Source of the DNA: an uncultured Bacteroidales bacterium
GTDB lineage: Bacteria > Bacteroidota > Bacteroidia > Bacteroidales > Muribaculaceae
DNA: 35,664 nt
Direction: 5' to 3'
Assembly (NCBI GenBank): GCA_945829225.1
Contig: CALZTY010000024.1
Coordinates: 1-35,664, forward strand
Shown one piece after another: positions 12,977 through 25,624 of the stretch. Each line of letters begins with the position of its first letter. The first letter of the stretch is position 1. The translations under genes and the position numbers were made by a program. The notes beneath the pieces are model-generated. The model saw nothing but the letters and a program-made list of their open reading frames with translations. It ran no database searches and was not told where the DNA came from.

Positions 12977-14113
12977 ATGACTAAATATTTTGATAGGAAA
13001 ATCGACTCAGCAGTGCTTTTTGCCCAGCCCTATTATCCGGTGACATGTATTACCGGACCGCGTCAGTCGGGCAAGACGTCGCTCTGTAAGCATCTTTTCC
13101 CTGATTACAAATATGTAAATCTTGAGGACCTCGCACATCGCGCAGCAGCGACTGCCGACCCCATAGGCTTTATGAATTCTTATGGTACCAATGTGATTAT
13201 TGACGAGGTTCAGCATGTCCCTCAGTTGCTATCCGTAATACAAGTGATGGTCGACGAAGATCGCTCACGTCGATTTATCATCACCGGTAGCAGCAATTTC
13301 TCCCTGATGACGACGATGACGCAGTCGCTTGCCGGGCGAGTCGCGCTATTCACTCTTTTGCCTTTTTCTTTAAATGAAATTCCTGAGGAGACGCGAAAAC
13401 AATCAATTGAGCAACTAATGCTTAATGGATTGTATCCCGGGGTAATCGCCAATGGCACACCCCATTCATTATTTTATAGTAACTACTACAATACCTATGT
13501 CAAGCGCGATGTCAGTGACTTGCTCAAGGTCAAGAACTTGCTCCACTTTGATACTTTTATTCGTCTTGTGGCTGCACGTGCAGGCTCTGAATTTAATGCC
13601 TCGGCTATTGCAAAGGAAGTCGGGGTATCGTCAGTGACTATCTCCGAGTGGTTATCAATCCTCACCTCTTCATATATTACTTTCCAGGTTCGCCCATATT
13701 ATGCAAATATCTCAAAACGACTCACCAAGATGCCTAAGGTGTATTTCTACGATACAGGGTTGCTGTGCTATCTCTTAAGTATCAATGATAGTGATGCCCT
13801 TGCCATGCATCCGCTTCGTGGTTCAATATTTGAAAACCTGGCTATGTGCGAGTTGTTCAAGCAAGGTTTCAATACAGGTTCCGAACCGAATATTAATTTC
13901 TACCGTGAGCACTCCGGTCGTGAAGTCGATGCAATGGTGCAATCCAATGGCAAATATCGGCTTTATGAAATGAAAGCCGGTCAAACTTTCCAAACGGATT
14001 ATACCAATAATATGAAATACCTTGCGCCCATATTGAAAGATGTGGAGAGCACTATGGTAATATACGATGGTGTCTCAATACCGCCGATAGCATTAAATAT
14101 ACGCGACTTATAG
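12977..14113 (+). CDS. AAA_14 / DUF4143 ATPase (first copy)
   Basis: A 378-aa orphan ATPase of the large AAA_14-DUF4143 group common in Bacteroidales, with no established function. Walker A is 'GPRQSGKT' (27-34), Walker B 'NVIIDEVQHVP' and sensor-like 'FIITGSSNF'. The middle contains a winged-helix-like segment ('IAKEVGVSSVTISEWLSIL'). The C-terminal DUF4143 part has 'KVYFYDTGLLCYLL', 'GSIFENL' and 'NFYREHSGREVDAMV', then 'LYEMKAGQT'. The E-N-L, E-V-D and E-x-K pattern resembles a PD-(D/E)XK nuclease core, so DNA cleavage or binding is possible but unproven. It converges with aroC, separated by only 3 nt. It differs clearly from the second copy at 21739. Confidence 0.9.
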   Translation: MTKYFDRKIDSAVLFAQPYYPVTCITGPRQSGKTSLCKHLFPDYKYVNLEDLAHRAAATADPIGFMNSYGTNVIIDEVQHVPQLLSVIQVMVDEDRSRRFIITGSSNFSLMTTMTQSLAGRVALFTLLPFSLNEIPEETRKQSIEQLMLNGLYPGVIANGTPHSLFYSNYYNTYVKRDVSDLLKVKNLLHFDTFIRLVAARAGSEFNASAIAKEVGVSSVTISEWLSILTSSYITFQVRPYYANISKRLTKMPKVYFYDTGLLCYLLSINDSDALAMHPLRGSIFENLAMCELFKQGFNTGSEPNINFYREHSGREVDAMVQSNGKYRLYEMKAGQTFQTDYTNNMKYLAPILKDVESTMVIYDGVSIPPIALNIRDL

Positions 14114-21606: not shown

Positions 21607-21687
21607 TACCTGTATGAGGGAGGATTTTTGGCGATTTTATCCCTCAATGAGGGAGATTTTTGATGATTTTCTTCCCTCTTACAGGGA
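21607..21687 (+). repeat. Three palindromic boxes at 33-nt spacing (operator-like array)
   Basis: Three 15-nt boxes lie at 21607-21621, 21640-21654 and 21673-21687, so their starts are exactly 33 nt apart. Box 2 is a perfect inverted repeat TCCCTC-AAT-GAGGGA; box 3 is TCCCTC-TTA-CAGGGA (5 of 6 pairs); box 1 is TACCTG-TAT-GAGGGA (4 of 6). The 18-nt spacers are alike too, both containing GATTTTTG and GATTTT. Box 3 ends 7 nt before the -7 element of the ATPase gene, covering the expected -33 region. This looks like a cooperative repressor site; no binding protein is known to me. Confidence 0.75.
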
Positions 21688-21694
21688 TTTTTCG

Positions 21695-21702
21695 TACCTT
21701 TG
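21695..21702 (+). promoter_or_regulatory. -7 element of the second DUF4143 ATPase gene
   Basis: TACCTTTG, 36 nt before the ATG at 21739. The longest in-frame ORF starts with a TTG inside this element, so that start is rejected. Confidence 0.7.
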
Positions 21703-21738: not shown

Positions 21739-22911
21739 ATGATAGAGCCGATTTTATACGATTATATGCACGAGATGCTACGGCAAACCGACTACCGGCA
21801 TCTTCGCTATATGTATGACAAGATAGAGTGGGACGACCGCCTCATCGGCATCGTAGGACCGCGTGGTGTGGGCAAGTCTACAATGGTCTTGCAGCGCATT
21901 AAGCGACTTGCCGACCCGTCGAAGGCGCTCTATGTCTCTGCCGACAATATTTATTTCTCCGACCACACCATCGTGGGGCTTGCCGACGCATTTGTCAAAG
22001 AGGGAGGCTCGCTGTTGGTGATAGACGAAATCCACAAATACAAGCAGTGGAGTCGCGAATTAAAGAATATCTACGATGTGCACCCGCGGCTGCATGTCGT
22101 CTTCACCGGGTCCTCGATACTCGACATACGACAGGGAGAAGCCGACCTCAGCCGTCGTGCCCTCATGTATCATATGCAGGGACTATCGTTCCGCGAATAT
22201 TTGATGATAGTTCACGATGTCGTAACACCTGCCTATAGCCTTGAAGATATTGTTGATCACCGTGTGGAGATGCCGTTGGAGCATCCCCTGCCGTATTTCC
22301 GAGACTACCTTGCTCGGGGCTATTATCCCTTTGGCAACGAGTATGGATTTGTGCAGCGTATCAATCAAGTAGTGAGTCAAACGCTCTACACTGATATCGC
22401 TCAATATGCTGATATCAAGCCGGCTACCGCTCGACGGCTAACGCAGATGCTTGCCGTAATCGCTCGACTTGCTCCCTACAAGCCGAGTTACGAGAGCCTT
22501 GCCACCGAGGTGGGCGTGAGCAAAAATAATGTGCCCGACTACCTGGTTTTGCTTGAGCAAGCCGGTATGATAGGTATGCTTCGTGATGATACAGCCGGCT
22601 TGAGAGGACTCGGCAAGGTCGAAAAGGTTTACATTGACAATCCCTCGCTGATGTCGGTCCTTGCTGCCGACAAGCCTGATGCGGGCAATCTGCGTGAGAC
22701 CTTCTTCTACAACCAGATGCGTGTAGCAAATGATTTGTCTGCGTCGCGTGTGTCTGATTTCTACATAGCGCCCTATACCTTTGAAGTCGGAGGCAGGCAC
22801 AAGGGCAAGCGTCAAATCTCCTCGGTGGAGCATGGCATCGTGGTGCGCGATGATATCGAGTACGGCGGCGCCGGTATTGTGCCATTGTGGCACTTTGGAA
22901 TGAACTATTAA
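21739..22911 (+). CDS. AAA_14 / DUF4143 ATPase (second copy)
   Basis: A 390-aa orphan ATPase. Walker A is 'GPRGVGKST' (40-48), Walker B 'GGSLLVIDEIHKY', and 'VVFTGSS' follows as in sensor 1. A winged-helix-like stretch 'YESLATEVGVSKNNVPDYLVLLEQAGMI' lies near 260-290. The C-terminal DUF4143 region has 'KVYIDNPSLMSVL' and 'NLRETFFYNQM', then ends in a short beta region where 'DFYIAPYTFEVGGRHKGK' keeps the E-V-G-G-x-x-K pattern of this subgroup. The function of the family is not established. The gene has its own promoter with the 33-nt box array upstream and a strong hairpin downstream, so it is a closed single-gene unit. The winged-helix segment makes self-regulation through the boxes conceivable, which is inference. 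Confidence 0.9.
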   Translation: MIEPILYDYMHEMLRQTDYRHLRYMYDKIEWDDRLIGIVGPRGVGKSTMVLQRIKRLADPSKALYVSADNIYFSDHTIVGLADAFVKEGGSLLVIDEIHKYKQWSRELKNIYDVHPRLHVVFTGSSILDIRQGEADLSRRALMYHMQGLSFREYLMIVHDVVTPAYSLEDIVDHRVEMPLEHPLPYFRDYLARGYYPFGNEYGFVQRINQVVSQTLYTDIAQYADIKPATARRLTQMLAVIARLAPYKPSYESLATEVGVSKNNVPDYLVLLEQAGMIGMLRDDTAGLRGLGKVEKVYIDNPSLMSVLAADKPDAGNLRETFFYNQMRVANDLSASRVSDFYIAPYTFEVGGRHKGKRQISSVEHGIVVRDDIEYGGAGIVPLWHFGMNY

Positions 22912-22912
22912 A

Positions 22913-22960
22913 CGCGATGACAGCGGCACCCCGTGGCGGAGTGTCGCTGTCGCGAGTTTT
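22913..22960 (+). terminator. Bidirectional hairpin terminator between ATPase and PTPS-like genes
   Basis: Left arm CGCGA-TGA-CAGCGGCAC (22913-22929) pairs with right arm GTGTCGCTGTCGCG (22941-22954), with a 3-nt bulge and one mismatch, followed by GAGTTTT on the plus strand. It begins 2 nt after the ATPase stop and lies between two convergent genes. Confidence 0.7.
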
Positions 22961-22976
22961 AGAGATAAATTATAGA

Positions 22977-23540
22977 TTACTTCTTGTAGCCACACTTGGG
23001 ACATACACCCTTGTCGTTCAGGGCGATACCACACCACGGGCAGCGGTCGACGCTACCGGTGACGTCAAACTCTGCCGTTGCCGCATTCACACCGCTGGTG
23101 AAGGTCAACTTGGCAATGTTCAGTTTGTCCTTGAGCAACTCATAGACAATCTTTATCATGCCCTCGACGGTCATGGTCTCTTTGGTCACAACCAGGCGGC
23201 AATCGGGATATGCCTTGGCAAGCGGGGTGTCAAATGCCTCGCCCTTCATCTTGTTCTGCGGGTGTCCGTTCTTGATGCCCTGCTTCTCATATACCTCGAG
23301 AATTGCCGGCAACAGAGGGTCGTCCTCACGCAATACCAGTGCGTGGTCAAAGTTCTTGAGTACATCCCATGCAATCTTCTGGATTTCGTTGCACGGGAAT
23401 ACCATGTTGACACCCTCGTTGACAATGTCCTCGACCTCGATGGTCAATGTGCCGGTGTGTCCGTGGAGATACTGGGCTTCGCCCTTGAAGCCATAAAAGC
23501 GATGTGCATACTGCAGATCTAATGTTGCGATACTTCTCAT
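22977..23540 (-). CDS. PTPS/QueD-like protein with C-terminal zinc ribbon
   Basis: A 187-aa protein of the 6-pyruvoyl-tetrahydropterin synthase/6-carboxytetrahydropterin synthase fold. Catalytic-zinc ligands are His13 ('YAHRF'), His26 and His28 ('LHGHTG'). 'NFDHALVL' and 'VTKETMTVEGMI' match the family. The catalytic Cys of QueD (CxxxHGH) should be at position 22, which is Ala, with Glu21 before it. A C-terminal extension has a four-Cys zinc ribbon, C167-x2-C170 and C180-x2-C183. The reaction is therefore uncertain: it may be a QueD paralogue with a changed active site or a different pterin enzyme. It lies 4 nt downstream of a Fur-family gene, so it is probably co-transcribed and metal-regulated. 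Zur-regulated QueD paralogues are known in other bacteria. Confidence 0.82.
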   Translation of the reverse strand: MRSIATLDLQYAHRFYGFKGEAQYLHGHTGTLTIEVEDIVNEGVNMVFPCNEIQKIAWDVLKNFDHALVLREDDPLLPAILEVYEKQGIKNGHPQNKMKGEAFDTPLAKAYPDCRLVVTKETMTVEGMIKIVYELLKDKLNIAKLTFTSGVNAATAEFDVTGSVDRCPWCGIALNDKGVCPKCGYKK

Positions 23541-23544
23541 AATT

Positions 23545-23964
23545 TTAGGAGTTTTTAGATGTTAGTTTATGATTAACGGTAATTTGTACTTGGATTTCTT
23601 CGATTTCGCTGTCTTTAAAGTTGTGACTGACAAGGTATTGCCTGATAACCTTGGTGAGCCCGCTGTCCTTGAAGTCGACAATCGACTGCCCGTCAAACAT
23701 ATGGTGATGCTCGCCCACAGTGATGTCGTAGTAACTCTTGCCCGTGTCGGGATGATAAATCACCGACAATAGGCGCGACTCGACAAAGGAGTCGAGTATG
23801 CGGTAGACAGTCGACAAGTTGACCATGCTGTCCTGCGCGGCAACTCGCTCGGCTATCTCGTCGAGCGTGGCGTGGCGCAACTCTTGCATCACGCCGTAGA
23901 CCAATCGACGTTGCGGTGTCACGCGCAAGCCTGCGTCCCTTATTATATCTTCAACAGTTTTCAT
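23545..23964 (-). CDS. Fur-family metal- or peroxide-responsive regulator
   Basis: A 139-aa Fur-superfamily repressor. The winged helix runs from 'LRVTPQRR' through 'ATLDEIAERV' to the recognition helix 'VNLSTVYRILDSF'. The dimerisation domain has 'HHH' at 86-88 as regulatory metal ligands. The structural CxxC that usually follows is absent ('FDGQ' at 90-93), as is the second C-terminal CxxC, so it lacks the Cys4 zinc site. Whether it senses Fe, Zn, Mn or peroxide cannot be told. The ORF is open for 65 more codons upstream, but the promoter lies within that stretch, so the start is the ATG at 23964, only 5 nt after the -7 element (possibly leaderless). Two 7-1-7-like boxes overlap the promoter, suggesting autoregulation. 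Confidence 0.88.
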   Translation of the reverse strand: MKTVEDIIRDAGLRVTPQRRLVYGVMQELRHATLDEIAERVAAQDSMVNLSTVYRILDSFVESRLLSVIYHPDTGKSYYDITVGEHHHMFDGQSIVDFKDSGLTKVIRQYLVSHNFKDSEIEEIQVQITVNHKLTSKNS

Positions 23965-23969
23965 CGCCA

Positions 23970-24010
23970 CAAAGTTAATGCAAATAATTCGCATCTGCAA
24001 ATATTTCGCA
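23970..24010 (-). promoter_or_regulatory. fur-family promoter with two tandem 7-1-7-like boxes
   Basis: On the minus strand TTTG (23998-24001), a 20-nt spacer and TAACTTTG (23970-23977). Two 15-nt boxes, TGCAAATAATTCGCA (23979-23993) and TGCAAATATTTCGCA (23996-24010), are 17 nt apart. Each is a near inverted repeat of the 7-1-7 form used by Fur-family proteins; box one has 6 of 7 pairs. They span and flank the -33 element, where a repressor would block RNA polymerase. Confidence 0.65.
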
Positions 24011-24144
24011 AAAAAATTCTGAATATTCGGCATCTTACTTTGGAAGCAAATAAAGAAAGTAGTTGCCAAATAGTATTTTATGCTATCAAATAAACAATCT
24101 AAAAACAGACCTTTCATCATATTCATCATTTGGTAAAAAATTTG

Positions 24145-24152
24145 TACCTTTG
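24145..24152 (+). promoter_or_regulatory. -7 element of the AlbA_2 ATPase gene
   Basis: TACCTTTG, ending 32 nt before the ATG at 24185. No convincing -33 element was found in the AT-rich sequence upstream. Confidence 0.6.
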
Positions 24153-24184
24153 CAAACAAGCATTAATCTGTCAAATATCATTAT

Positions 24185-25624
24185 ATGGATTGGAAAGATC
24201 GTGCATTAACGCTTCTACGAGAAAGTTTGGAACCAGTTCCATCCGAACTTAACGAACTCGACTGGAAAAGTGGCTTATCTGACAAATCAGATAGGCTCGC
24301 TCAACACATATCTGCTTTTGCCAACCATTTTTGCGGTGGAGTACTTGTCTATGGTGTGAACAATGACGGTTCATTATTTTCTCTTGGTCAAGAGCAAATT
24401 GAGGAGATCGTCAGAAAGCTTGGCAATATTGCCTATAATAATCTCTCTCACAAAATTCAAATAGAACATACTGTTGTAAAGTACAATGGCGAAAATCTAT
24501 TATTTGTGTACATTCCGGAGGAACAACAGAAGCCGGTACACCTTCGTGGTAAAGATATTTATGCATCATACTACCGTTCAGGCGGTCAAACGCTTAAAAT
24601 GTCAGCAAAGCAGGTTCAGGTGCTAATTGCTAAGTCTAATGGTATCTCCTTTGAAGAAAATATCGCACTTGAAAATTTAAAACAAGAAGAAGTTCTTTCC
24701 TTACTTGACTATCAGACGCTCTATCGCATCATAGATAAAAATGTACCAAAGTCAACAGACTCGATCCTTGCAAAGCTTACTGAAATGGGATACTGCTATG
24801 AAAAAAAAGGTATGTGGACTATTACCAATCTCGGTGCCATTCTATTTGCGAGGTCACTTTCCAACTTTCAATCGTTAAGTGGTCGAGAGGTTATAGTAAG
24901 AACATATGTCGGTCAAAACAACCGACAACTTAAGCAAGAACAACGTGGCAGTCTTGGTTATGCTGTCGGGTTTGAGGGATTGATTGACTATATTATGCTT
25001 AATACAGGGCATGAGGTTATCGATGTATCAAGAAGTATCGAACCTATATATCCAAGGGTTGCTATCAGAGAGTTTGTTGCCAATGCCTTGATTCATCAAG
25101 ACTTTGCCATTGATGGCTCGCCAATCACTATTGAGATTTTCAGCAACCGCCTAGTTATCACGAATCCGGGTGCCCCGCTTAATAATATTAACCGATTGCT
25201 CGACTTACCGCCACGTTCTCGCAATGAGCATTTGGCGCAGTCAATGCTTCTGCTAAACCTTTGCGAGCGACGAGGTAGTGGTGTTGACCGTGCAATCGAG
25301 GCTGTTGAAAAAATGTTCTTGCCTCCAGTAAAATTTCAGACACTTGATGACTATACGAGGGTTACACTCTTCCCCCAAAAATCTCTATCAGAAATGACTA
25401 AACGCGAGAAAATTATGGCATGTTATCAACACGCATGCTTAATGTTCGAGGATAACGTCGCAATAAGCAACCAGTCAATCCGCGACCGCTTTGGGCTTAA
25501 TAAGAACCAGTCGTCGATTGCATCAAGAATACTTGCCGATGCTGTCGAAGAAAAACTCATAAAGCCGGCTAACGAAGAAAGTCTCTCTAAGAAATTTTCT
25601 ACTTATGTGCCTTTTTATGCCTGA
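24185..25624 (+). CDS. AlbA_2 (Schlafen-like) DNA/RNA-binding domain with HATPase_c_4
   Basis: A 479-aa protein of the 'ATP-binding/RNA-binding domain-containing' family. The N-terminal AlbA_2 (Schlafen AlbA) domain has 'NELDWKSGL', 'LAQHISAFANHFCGGVLVYGVNNDG' (described as residues about 38-62) and 'RGKDIYASYYRSG'. The C-terminal GHKL-type ATPase domain has 'IREFVANALIHQDF' (N box), 'IEIFSNRLVITNPGAP' and 'LNLCERRGSGVDRAI' (G box), followed by a winged-helix tail. Such proteins are often called transcriptional regulators and are frequent in accessory and defence-associated islands, but the role here is unknown. AT-rich codons and lysine/asparagine richness differ from its neighbours, suggesting acquisition by transfer. 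No partner gene is adjacent. Confidence 0.88.
   Translation: MDWKDRALTLLRESLEPVPSELNELDWKSGLSDKSDRLAQHISAFANHFCGGVLVYGVNNDGSLFSLGQEQIEEIVRKLGNIAYNNLSHKIQIEHTVVKYNGENLLFVYIPEEQQKPVHLRGKDIYASYYRSGGQTLKMSAKQVQVLIAKSNGISFEENIALENLKQEEVLSLLDYQTLYRIIDKNVPKSTDSILAKLTEMGYCYEKKGMWTITNLGAILFARSLSNFQSLSGREVIVRTYVGQNNRQLKQEQRGSLGYAVGFEGLIDYIMLNTGHEVIDVSRSIEPIYPRVAIREFVANALIHQDFAIDGSPITIEIFSNRLVITNPGAPLNNINRLLDLPPRSRNEHLAQSMLLLNLCERRGSGVDRAIEAVEKMFLPPVKFQTLDDYTRVTLFPQKSLSEMTKREKIMACYQHACLMFEDNVAISNQSIRDRFGLNKNQSSIASRILADAVEEKLIKPANEESLSKKFSTYVPFYA

What the first reader, a model, noticed from the sequence alone, without database searches (positions are those of the whole stretch)
21607..21702. Three palindromic boxes at exact 33-nt spacing in the promoter of an orphan DUF4143 ATPase
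The boxes (consensus TCCCTC-N3-GAGGGA) start at 21607, 21640 and 21673, with similar spacers, and quality rises toward the promoter. The last one covers the expected -33 region, 7 nt before TACCTTTG. Such regular, phased palindromes imply a cooperatively binding factor occluding the promoter, and the downstream protein carries a winged-helix-like segment, so autoregulation is possible. DUF4143 ATPases are abundant in Bacteroidales with no known control mechanism. I do not know a described regulator with this site.
Basis: partly seen in the sequence, partly recalled or inferred. Interest (0 to 1): 0.7.

Follow-up and report, generated by a model that had tools for sequence, protein, structure and literature searches.

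The report
ATPase genes with private address boxes
A very common but unexplained bacterial ATPase gene often carries, at its own promoter, a regularly spaced set of mirror-image DNA boxes whose sequence differs from gene to gene and tracks the protein's own predicted DNA-reading helix, which suggests that each of these proteins recognises and controls its own gene.

Summary
The three boxes (21607, 21640, 21673) are real and beyond chance (0 of 400 shuffled windows). They are one case of something wider. Relatives of this DUF4143/AAA_14 ATPase often carry, at their own promoter, palindromes mostly 32-34 nt apart (184 of 215 spacings), but the palindrome differs from gene to gene. In the window's genome 16 of 17 DUF4143 promoters are unusually repeat-rich, against 31 of 258 other genes. 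Box centres keep one register to the -7 element (196 of 313; 66 expected). Among 160 genes the protein segment that best predicts the box is residues 260-272; an AlphaFold model puts the winged-helix recognition helix at 262-274.

Best reading: the ATPase binds its own array through its winged helix and controls, probably represses, its own promoter. Binding and repression are inferred. The protein matches PADLOC's PDC-S01, a very common, unvalidated defence candidate; my paper searches found nothing on its control. Not everything fits: 77 of 235 genes lack a strong array, and 4 of 13 exact array loci have no ATPase gene nearby.

The parts
21607..21621 (.). palindromic box 1, TACCTGTATGAGGGA (2 mismatches to the consensus); centre 81 nt before the -7 element
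   Evidence: sequence
21640..21654 (.). palindromic box 2, TCCCTCAATGAGGGA (perfect); centre 48 nt before the -7 element
21673..21687 (.). palindromic box 3, TCCCTCTTACAGGGA (1 mismatch); centre 15 nt before the -7 element, in the -33/-7 spacer
   Evidence: offset counted from the sequence (the box finder listed only boxes 1 and 2)
21695..21702 (+). TACCTTTG, Bacteroidota-type -7 element of the ATPase gene (motif name recalled, not from a call)
   Evidence: sequence; TAnnTTTG follows the boxes in relatives
21739..22911 (+). AAA_14/DUF4143 ATPase, 390 aa; matches PADLOC PDC-S01
   Evidence: AAA_14 E 1.7e-28, DUF4143 E 1.1e-8; PDC-S01 E 7.3e-26
21835..22203 (+). nucleotide-binding domain (residues 33-155); G45, K46, D96 and E97 invariant in 117 sequences
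22420..22635 (+). winged-helix domain (residues 228-299)
   Evidence: AlphaFold2 model, mean pLDDT 94.7
22522..22560 (+). recognition helix (residues 262-274), proposed reader of the boxes
22648..22908 (+). C-terminal domain (residues 304-390), possibly PD-(D/E)XK-like (weak fold matches); D340, E349 and K355 invariant in 117 sequences

Best explanation
Two winged helices, probably of a dimer, read the two halves of each palindrome, mainly through the start of the recognition helix (about residues 260-268). Boxes about three helical turns apart lie on one face of the DNA and in a fixed register to the -7 element, so that neighbouring dimers can touch and cover the promoter: autoregulation, most likely repression. 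Many genes of the family have their own box sequence and matching helix, so paralogues in one genome could control themselves separately. Shown by computation: the boxes, their spacing and register, their recurrence and divergence, and their association with the recognition helix. Inferred: binding, dimers, cooperativity, repression, insulation between paralogues, and any role of ATP.
For: Recurrence: of 235 full-length genes with upstream DNA (the window's own gene is one; a few are near-identical), the box score exceeds the pooled 95% level of dinucleotide shuffles in 183, the 99% level in 158, and every one of 2350 shuffles in 107. Spacing in the 158: 184 of 215 intervals are 32-34 nt, 14 are 29 nt. 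Register: in 132 genes with a single TAnnTTTG in the last 75 nt, 196 of 313 boxes lie within 3 nt of one 33-nt register, against 66 if uniform (register chosen after seeing the histogram). Own genome: 16 of 17 DUF4143 promoters exceed the control 95% level on at least one of three repeat scores, against 31 of 258 other genes, Fisher 7e-13 (16 of the 17 genes are over Pfam's cut-off). Privacy: 14 own-genome repeat units were sought in 436 kb (19% of the genome). For the 5 units whose home lies in that sample, hits were at home except one 4-mismatch hit of the L022 unit (L082:18712). Of the 9 units whose home lies outside it, 8 had no hit and the 12-nt L018 unit had one with 1 mismatch (L081:6219). 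Reader: in a nearest-neighbour test over 378 segments and 160 genes, 260-272 is best at identity caps 0.45, 0.5 and 0.6; it or a segment within 253-273 stays best when either or both large box classes are left out, and in 91 of 100 bootstraps the best segment starts at 246-268. In 82 phylogenetically independent pairs the best 11-residue window is 254-264, partial r 0.43, and the best column N263. The helix at 262-274 comes from a structure model that had no knowledge of the boxes. K262 goes with TCCC/GGGA boxes in 14 of 17 genes, R262 in 2 of 135 (K262 is clustered in the tree). L091 and L144, 40% identical overall, share an HRT helix start and almost the same box, TGTCGGTT..AACCGACA.
Against: No binding or expression data exist. 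52 of 235 genes do not pass the 95% shuffle level and 77 not the 99% level. In one search other windows come close (319-329 r 0.42; 144-154 r 0.37). Column rankings were led in part by clade markers: in 112 genes S339 and V294 held the first two places (K262 third) for pairs under 42% and under 50% identity, and wHTH columns were not enriched there (6 of the top 20, p 0.14; 4 of 20, p 0.52), only with closer pairs (9 of 20, p 0.005; 10 of 20, p 0.001). An earlier version on 146 genes put Y247 or K262 first, but for pairs of 35-50% identity its best window was 96-107. Shuffling boxes between genes, which ignores the tree, gave a best segment of up to 4.99 against 5.28 observed (100 shuffles), and without both large box classes the lead over the best segment elsewhere was small at cap 0.5 (5.24 against 5.08). 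Array and gene are not always together: of 13 loci with an exact two-box array in 393 genomes, 6 have a cognate ATPase directly downstream, 1 a DUF4143 gene of another subfamily with different repeats nearer its promoter, 2 a decayed ATPase gene, and 4 (two of them orthologous sites) no ATPase gene in the fetched 3 kb.
Confidence: 0.75

Rival explanations
1. A separate regulator, not the ATPase, binds the boxes and controls the gene.
For: Many autoregulated systems have a dedicated regulator (recalled); a Fur-family gene lies about 0.6 kb downstream in the window (23545-24159). Windows outside the wHTH also correlate with box likeness (319-329).
Against: Box sequence tracks the ATPase's own recognition helix. 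No neighbouring gene is widely conserved: 262 neighbour ORFs of the 80 loci fall into 243 clusters, the largest (9 loci) looking by eye like other DUF4143-type ATPases. A separate regulator would have to differ for almost every gene.
Confidence: 0.1
2. The array is primarily a DNA-level working site of the ATPase (loading, sensing, partition, mobility or cutting), and promoter control is secondary.
For: The protein is an NTPase with a possibly nuclease-like C-terminus, more than a repressor needs. Array plus gene look like a lone cassette: between the window and L034 or L035 (1.5-kb flanks held) only gene and array align. Two arrays stand beside decayed genes and four without a gene. Private direct repeats are also typical of iteron-type initiators (recalled).
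Against: The boxes keep a fixed register to the -7 element, which a site without promoter function would not need. Exact two-box GAGGGA arrays were not found in viral contigs.
Confidence: 0.15
3. The boxes act as RNA hairpins or terminators.
For: Palindromes fold; at the orthologous sites L322 and L323 two boxes with flanking A and T runs lie between genes and look like a two-way terminator.
Against: The commonest centres, -16, -48 and -81, lie upstream of the -7 element and hence outside the transcript; only 17 of 313 centres lie near or past it, 16 of them at +14. Several arrays of the own genome are direct repeats without a notable palindrome, such as L019, L020 and L029.
Confidence: 0.03
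4. Chance palindromes in AT-rich intergenic DNA.
For: The window promoter alone scores only moderately on two general measures, and 77 of 235 relatives have no box above the 99% shuffle level.
Against: Shuffle tests, recurrence, spacing and register.
Confidence: 0.01

Closest known systems
PDC-S01 of PADLOC-DB (single-gene phage-defence candidate); Pfam AAA_14 + DUF4143
   Same: The window protein matches six PDC-S01 models with E 7e-26 to 6e-9 and a seventh at 0.005 (also weakly mad8, E 2e-4); this is the family itself.
   Different: The family is defined by the protein only. PMC12988326 (passages) calls it the fourth most common defence across prokaryotes and the PDCs unvalidated; no passage or listing that I saw mentions its promoter.
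Archaeal ATPases SSO1545 (2fna) and PABY2304 (2qen)
   Different: 15-16% identity; whether they bind DNA was not examined (the SSO1545 paper is not held).
NLR/apoptosome NB-ARC modules (CED-4, plant NLRs) and Avs5
   Different: No repeat or sensor region here; sequence-specific reading of an own promoter is not described for them in the passages I saw.
STAND-type regulators with a separate DNA-binding domain (IniR; MalT recalled)
   Same: ATPase that controls transcription; IniR's ATPase domain is predicted to resemble SSO1545 (PMC5760070, passages).
   Different: In IniR a C-terminal SdiA-like domain is the DNA-binding part; here the winged helix of the core itself is proposed to read DNA.
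Autoregulated repressors, toxin-antitoxin and restriction controllers with operator arrays; plasmid initiators with iterons (all recalled)
   Same: Private, repeated sites at the protein's own promoter.
   Different: Here the proposed reader is a STAND-like ATPase with a possibly nuclease-like tail, in a very large family with diverging boxes.

Membership tests
AAA_14/DUF4143 ATPase | match above Pfam gathering scores | tested here: met
   AAA_14 99.6 bits (cut-off 27), DUF4143 35.4 bits (cut-off 28.1)
PDC-S01 (PADLOC) | match to the PADLOC models | tested here: met
   best E 7.3e-26
PDC-S01 (PADLOC) | anti-phage activity | not testable with these tools
   PDCs reported as unvalidated in PMC12988326 (passages)
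STAND-like NTPase | NTPase core followed by helical domain and winged helix | tested here: met
STAND-like NTPase | C-terminal repeat or sensor region | tested here: not met
   390 aa; after the winged helix only a small alpha/beta domain; hence 'STAND-like fold', not 'a STAND sensor'
PD-(D/E)XK nuclease | core fold | tested here: inconclusive
PD-(D/E)XK nuclease | D...(E)xK active site | tested here: inconclusive
   D340, E349 and K355 invariant in 117 sequences, but the residue two after E349 is G351, not K
Autoregulated DNA-binding protein | repeated operator-like sites at own promoter | tested here: met
Autoregulated DNA-binding protein | protein's specificity residues co-vary with the sites | tested here: met
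   weak or absent in parts
Autoregulated DNA-binding protein | binding in vitro and effect on expression | not testable with these tools
   needs a gel shift and a reporter
Iteron-type replication initiator | array serves as replication origin | not testable with these tools
   no origin assay; 221 of 393 genomes of the order carry a relative at E<=1e-30

The most novel reading that the evidence does not exclude
The array is a self-address rather than only an operator. The STAND-like ATPase is stored on its own promoter, its winged helix bound to the private boxes; a trigger such as infection, acting through nucleotide exchange, releases it, which at once frees the promoter and lets the protein act as effector through its nuclease-like tail. 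The family diversifies its helix and boxes together so that many copies in one genome stay insulated. One of the most common uncharacterised defence candidates would thus be a bacterial NLR-like module that reads DNA with the winged helix of its core.
Probability: 0.2. Interest if true: 0.92.

Novelty: new variant of a known kind. Interest (0 to 1): 0.76.

Why it matters
PDC-S01 is reported as the fourth most common defence across prokaryotes (PMC12988326, passages) and the most frequent individual defence locus in a rumen genome set (PMC13356809, passages), yet I found no account of its control or mechanism. A private operator gives each member a predicted DNA ligand: binding, specificity swaps and induction become directly testable. 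With many natural protein-box pairs the family could also yield a recognition code for winged helices and a set of separately addressed regulators.

Tried and rejected
Search only for the literal box: it finds the window array but misses the phenomenon, since relatives use other boxes. Viral contigs: no exact two-box GAGGGA array; two stretches matched a peptide pattern of the window protein but none encoded a relative (close relatives only).

Insulation between paralogues in one genome: inconclusive. Of 59 same-genome pairs 4 had alike boxes, of 1537 other pairs 95; at 30-40% identity the sign was opposite to insulation (2 of 17 against 1.3%).

Exclusiveness of the array: rejected. Exact two-box arrays (0 for the reversed pattern) were found at 13 loci in 393 genomes: L324, L327, L331-L334 (6) before a cognate ATPase; L329 before a DUF4143 gene of another subfamily with other repeats nearer its promoter (read by eye); L326 and L328 beside decayed ATPase genes; L322, L323 (orthologous sites), L325 and L330 without one in the 3 kb held.

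Other phyla: DUF4143 genes in eight genomes reached through loci titled Treponemataceae, Lentisphaeria, Campylobacterales, Campylobacteraceae (two), Verrucomicrobia, Prolixibacter and Algoriphagus. Of 63 listed matches 30 loci were fetched; 26 had a full gene, 25 were scored, and 7 (L295, L296, L309, L310, L316, L319, L321; L296 is Algoriphagus, Bacteroidota) exceed 17.2, the 95% level taken from the other gene set. So the trait reaches beyond Bacteroidota but looks weaker there; starts were chosen by rule and some may be wrong.

PDB by sequence: no true relative; RecA-fusion chains score through the P-loop alone (E 5e-16 over residues 34-70), ORC4 weakly over 257-314 (E 0.002). Viral fold library: replication factor C and other AAA proteins.

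Papers, seen as listings unless named above: DUF4143 (1), AAA_14 (11), PDC-S01 (3, two read in passages), SSO1545/PABY2304/PAB2304 (3, two read in passages), COG1373/PF13173/PF13635 (8), and four word searches (the listings of 48 and 68 were cut to 15 of 85 and 12 of 193). None of these titles or passages deals with control of this family. Subscription papers and preprints are not held, so absence is not proven.

Dropped before counts: 4 of 239 loci (length outside 355-430 aa, short upstream, or N runs); genes with a box score under 18 or under 20.3 before the helix tests, which leaves 176 and 160 of 235.

Full report
What is there. Three imperfect palindromes of 15 nt start at 21607, 21640 and 21673; the middle one is perfect. 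TACCTTTG at 21695-21702 and the ATG at 21739 follow. No other such triple exists in the window, and none in 400 shuffled windows; the box score was reached by 1 of 4000 shuffles of the 170 nt before the gene. In the 2.27-Mb genome the box has no excess elsewhere (33 places with up to one mismatch, 30 for the reversed control). On two general repeat scores the window promoter alone is unremarkable.

The wider pattern. The genome holds 17 DUF4143 matches, 16 over Pfam's cut-off. Reading their upstream DNA showed a different repeat before nearly each: four copies at 33 nt in L029, 23-nt repeats in L019 and L022, a long palindrome in L026. On three repeat scores 16 of 17 exceed the 95% level of 258 other genes on at least one, against 31 of 258. 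The exception, L027, has two copies that are, by eye, too far apart for the score. In a 400-kb sample of 262 upstream regions the four DUF4143 genes rank 1, 2, 3 and 6 by direct repeat.

Relatives of the window protein. I collected 239 loci, the window's own gene among them: from the window's family and order (198 and 393 genomes searched; regions) and 80 from named genomes. 235 were full-length with usable upstream DNA. The window's family is likely Muribaculaceae: L164, titled Muribaculaceae, encodes a protein identical to L059, which comes from a genome of the window's family. Boxes exceed the 99% shuffle level in 158 of 235 genes; 77 do not. In the 158, 184 of 215 spacings are 32-34 nt and 14 are 29 nt. 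In 132 genes with a single TAnnTTTG, centres pile up at about -16, -48, -81 and +14 from that element: 196 of 313 within 3 nt of this register against 66 expected (register set). The window's boxes fit at -15, -48 and -81.

Who reads the boxes. If the ATPase does, its DNA-reading residues should predict the box. For each of 160 genes with strong boxes I took the gene most alike in a given 13-residue segment, among genes below a set overall identity, and scored the likeness of the boxes. It, or a segment within 253-273, stays best without the TGCAC boxes, without the TCCCT boxes and without both, in the last case by a small margin at cap 0.5 (5.24 against 5.08). In 91 of 100 bootstraps the best segment starts at 246-268; 100 random reassignments of boxes, which ignore the tree, reached at most 4.99. 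Among 82 phylogenetically independent pairs the best window is 254-264 (partial r 0.43), closely followed by 319-329 (0.42). Less favourable: column rankings were led in part by clade markers and showed no wHTH enrichment for distant pairs, and in a first version one identity band pointed to 96-107. The recognition helix was placed at 262-274 by a model that knew nothing of the boxes. K262 goes with TCCC/GGGA boxes in 14 of 17 genes, R262 in 2 of 135, though K262 is clustered in the tree. L091 and L144 share 40% identity, the same HRT helix start and nearly the same box.

Context. In the 80 loci, 262 neighbouring ORFs form 243 clusters; the largest, in 9 loci, looks by eye like other DUF4143-type ATPases. 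Between the window and L034 or L035 only the gene and the array align; with L203-L205 only part of the gene (1.5-kb flanks held). The gene plus its array behaves as a lone cassette.

Privacy. Of 14 own-genome repeat units sought in 436 kb, the 5 with their home in that sample hit only there, except one 4-mismatch hit of the L022 unit; of the 9 with their home elsewhere, 8 had no hit and the short L018 unit one.

Limits of the link. Exact two-box arrays in 393 genomes were found at 13 loci and never for the reversed pattern: 6 before a cognate ATPase, 1 before a DUF4143 gene of another subfamily that has other repeats of its own, 2 beside decayed ATPase genes (L326, L328), 4 without an ATPase gene in the 3 kb held (L322 and L323, which are orthologous sites, L325, L330). 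Arrays beside decayed genes suggest that arrays outlive genes. Those without a gene are unexplained; they could be relics, second targets or, at L322 and L323, terminators.

Mechanism. Palindromes fit a dimer; spacing near three turns and one register to the promoter fit side-by-side binding that covers it. I therefore propose autoregulation, most likely repression, by the ATPase through its winged helix. What ATP and the C-terminal domain do, and whether the protein defends against phages, is open. PDC-S01 is reported as very abundant, with PDCs unvalidated (PMC12988326, passages; PMC13356809, passages).

Novelty. Self-binding to operator arrays is a known kind of control (recalled). Its use by a STAND-like ATPase that would read DNA with its core winged helix, in a very large family with diverging private boxes, was not found in my paper searches, which do not cover subscription journals or preprints. 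I rate it a new variant of a known kind.

Noticed in passing
12977-14113 (+): A second DUF4143 ATPase gene, of another subfamily, lies in the window (DUF4143 E 1.4e-46); its upstream region shows an inverted repeat whose score is reached by 3% of the sampled regions and no notable direct repeat (L016).
   Followed up: partly
L326:1553-1715 and L328:1568-1615: Arrays followed by decayed ATPase genes: in L326 only a part around the winged helix is recognisable, in L328 only about the last 16 residues.
   Followed up: partly
L322, L323, L325, L330, around 1501-1550: Exact two-box arrays without an ATPase gene in the fetched 3 kb; L322 and L323 are orthologous sites between genes and could be terminators.
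   Followed up: partly
L316, upstream of the DUF4143 gene (genome reached through a Treponemataceae locus): Four copies of TTTTCGGTGCCATTTTGA at 33 nt, outside Bacteroidota if the bin is sound.
   Followed up: no
L074:4259-4916 (-) and L069:3302-5171 (-): Two genes of the window's genome that are not among the DUF4143 matches also have strong tandem repeats upstream (scores 21.0 and 23.5).
   Followed up: no
22887-23522 (+) and 22977-23540 (-): The ORF that overlaps the end of the ATPase gene has no family match, whereas the opposite strand encodes a PTPS-like protein (E 1e-10), so the plus-strand ORF is probably spurious.
   Followed up: partly
23545-24159 (-) and 24185-25624 (+): A Fur-family regulator and an AlbA_2/HATPase_c_4 protein lie downstream of the ATPase gene.
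   Followed up: no
protein residues 319-332 (window 22693-22734): A second segment, before the C-terminal strands, also correlates with box likeness in independent pairs; it may touch DNA or a partner subunit.
   Followed up: no
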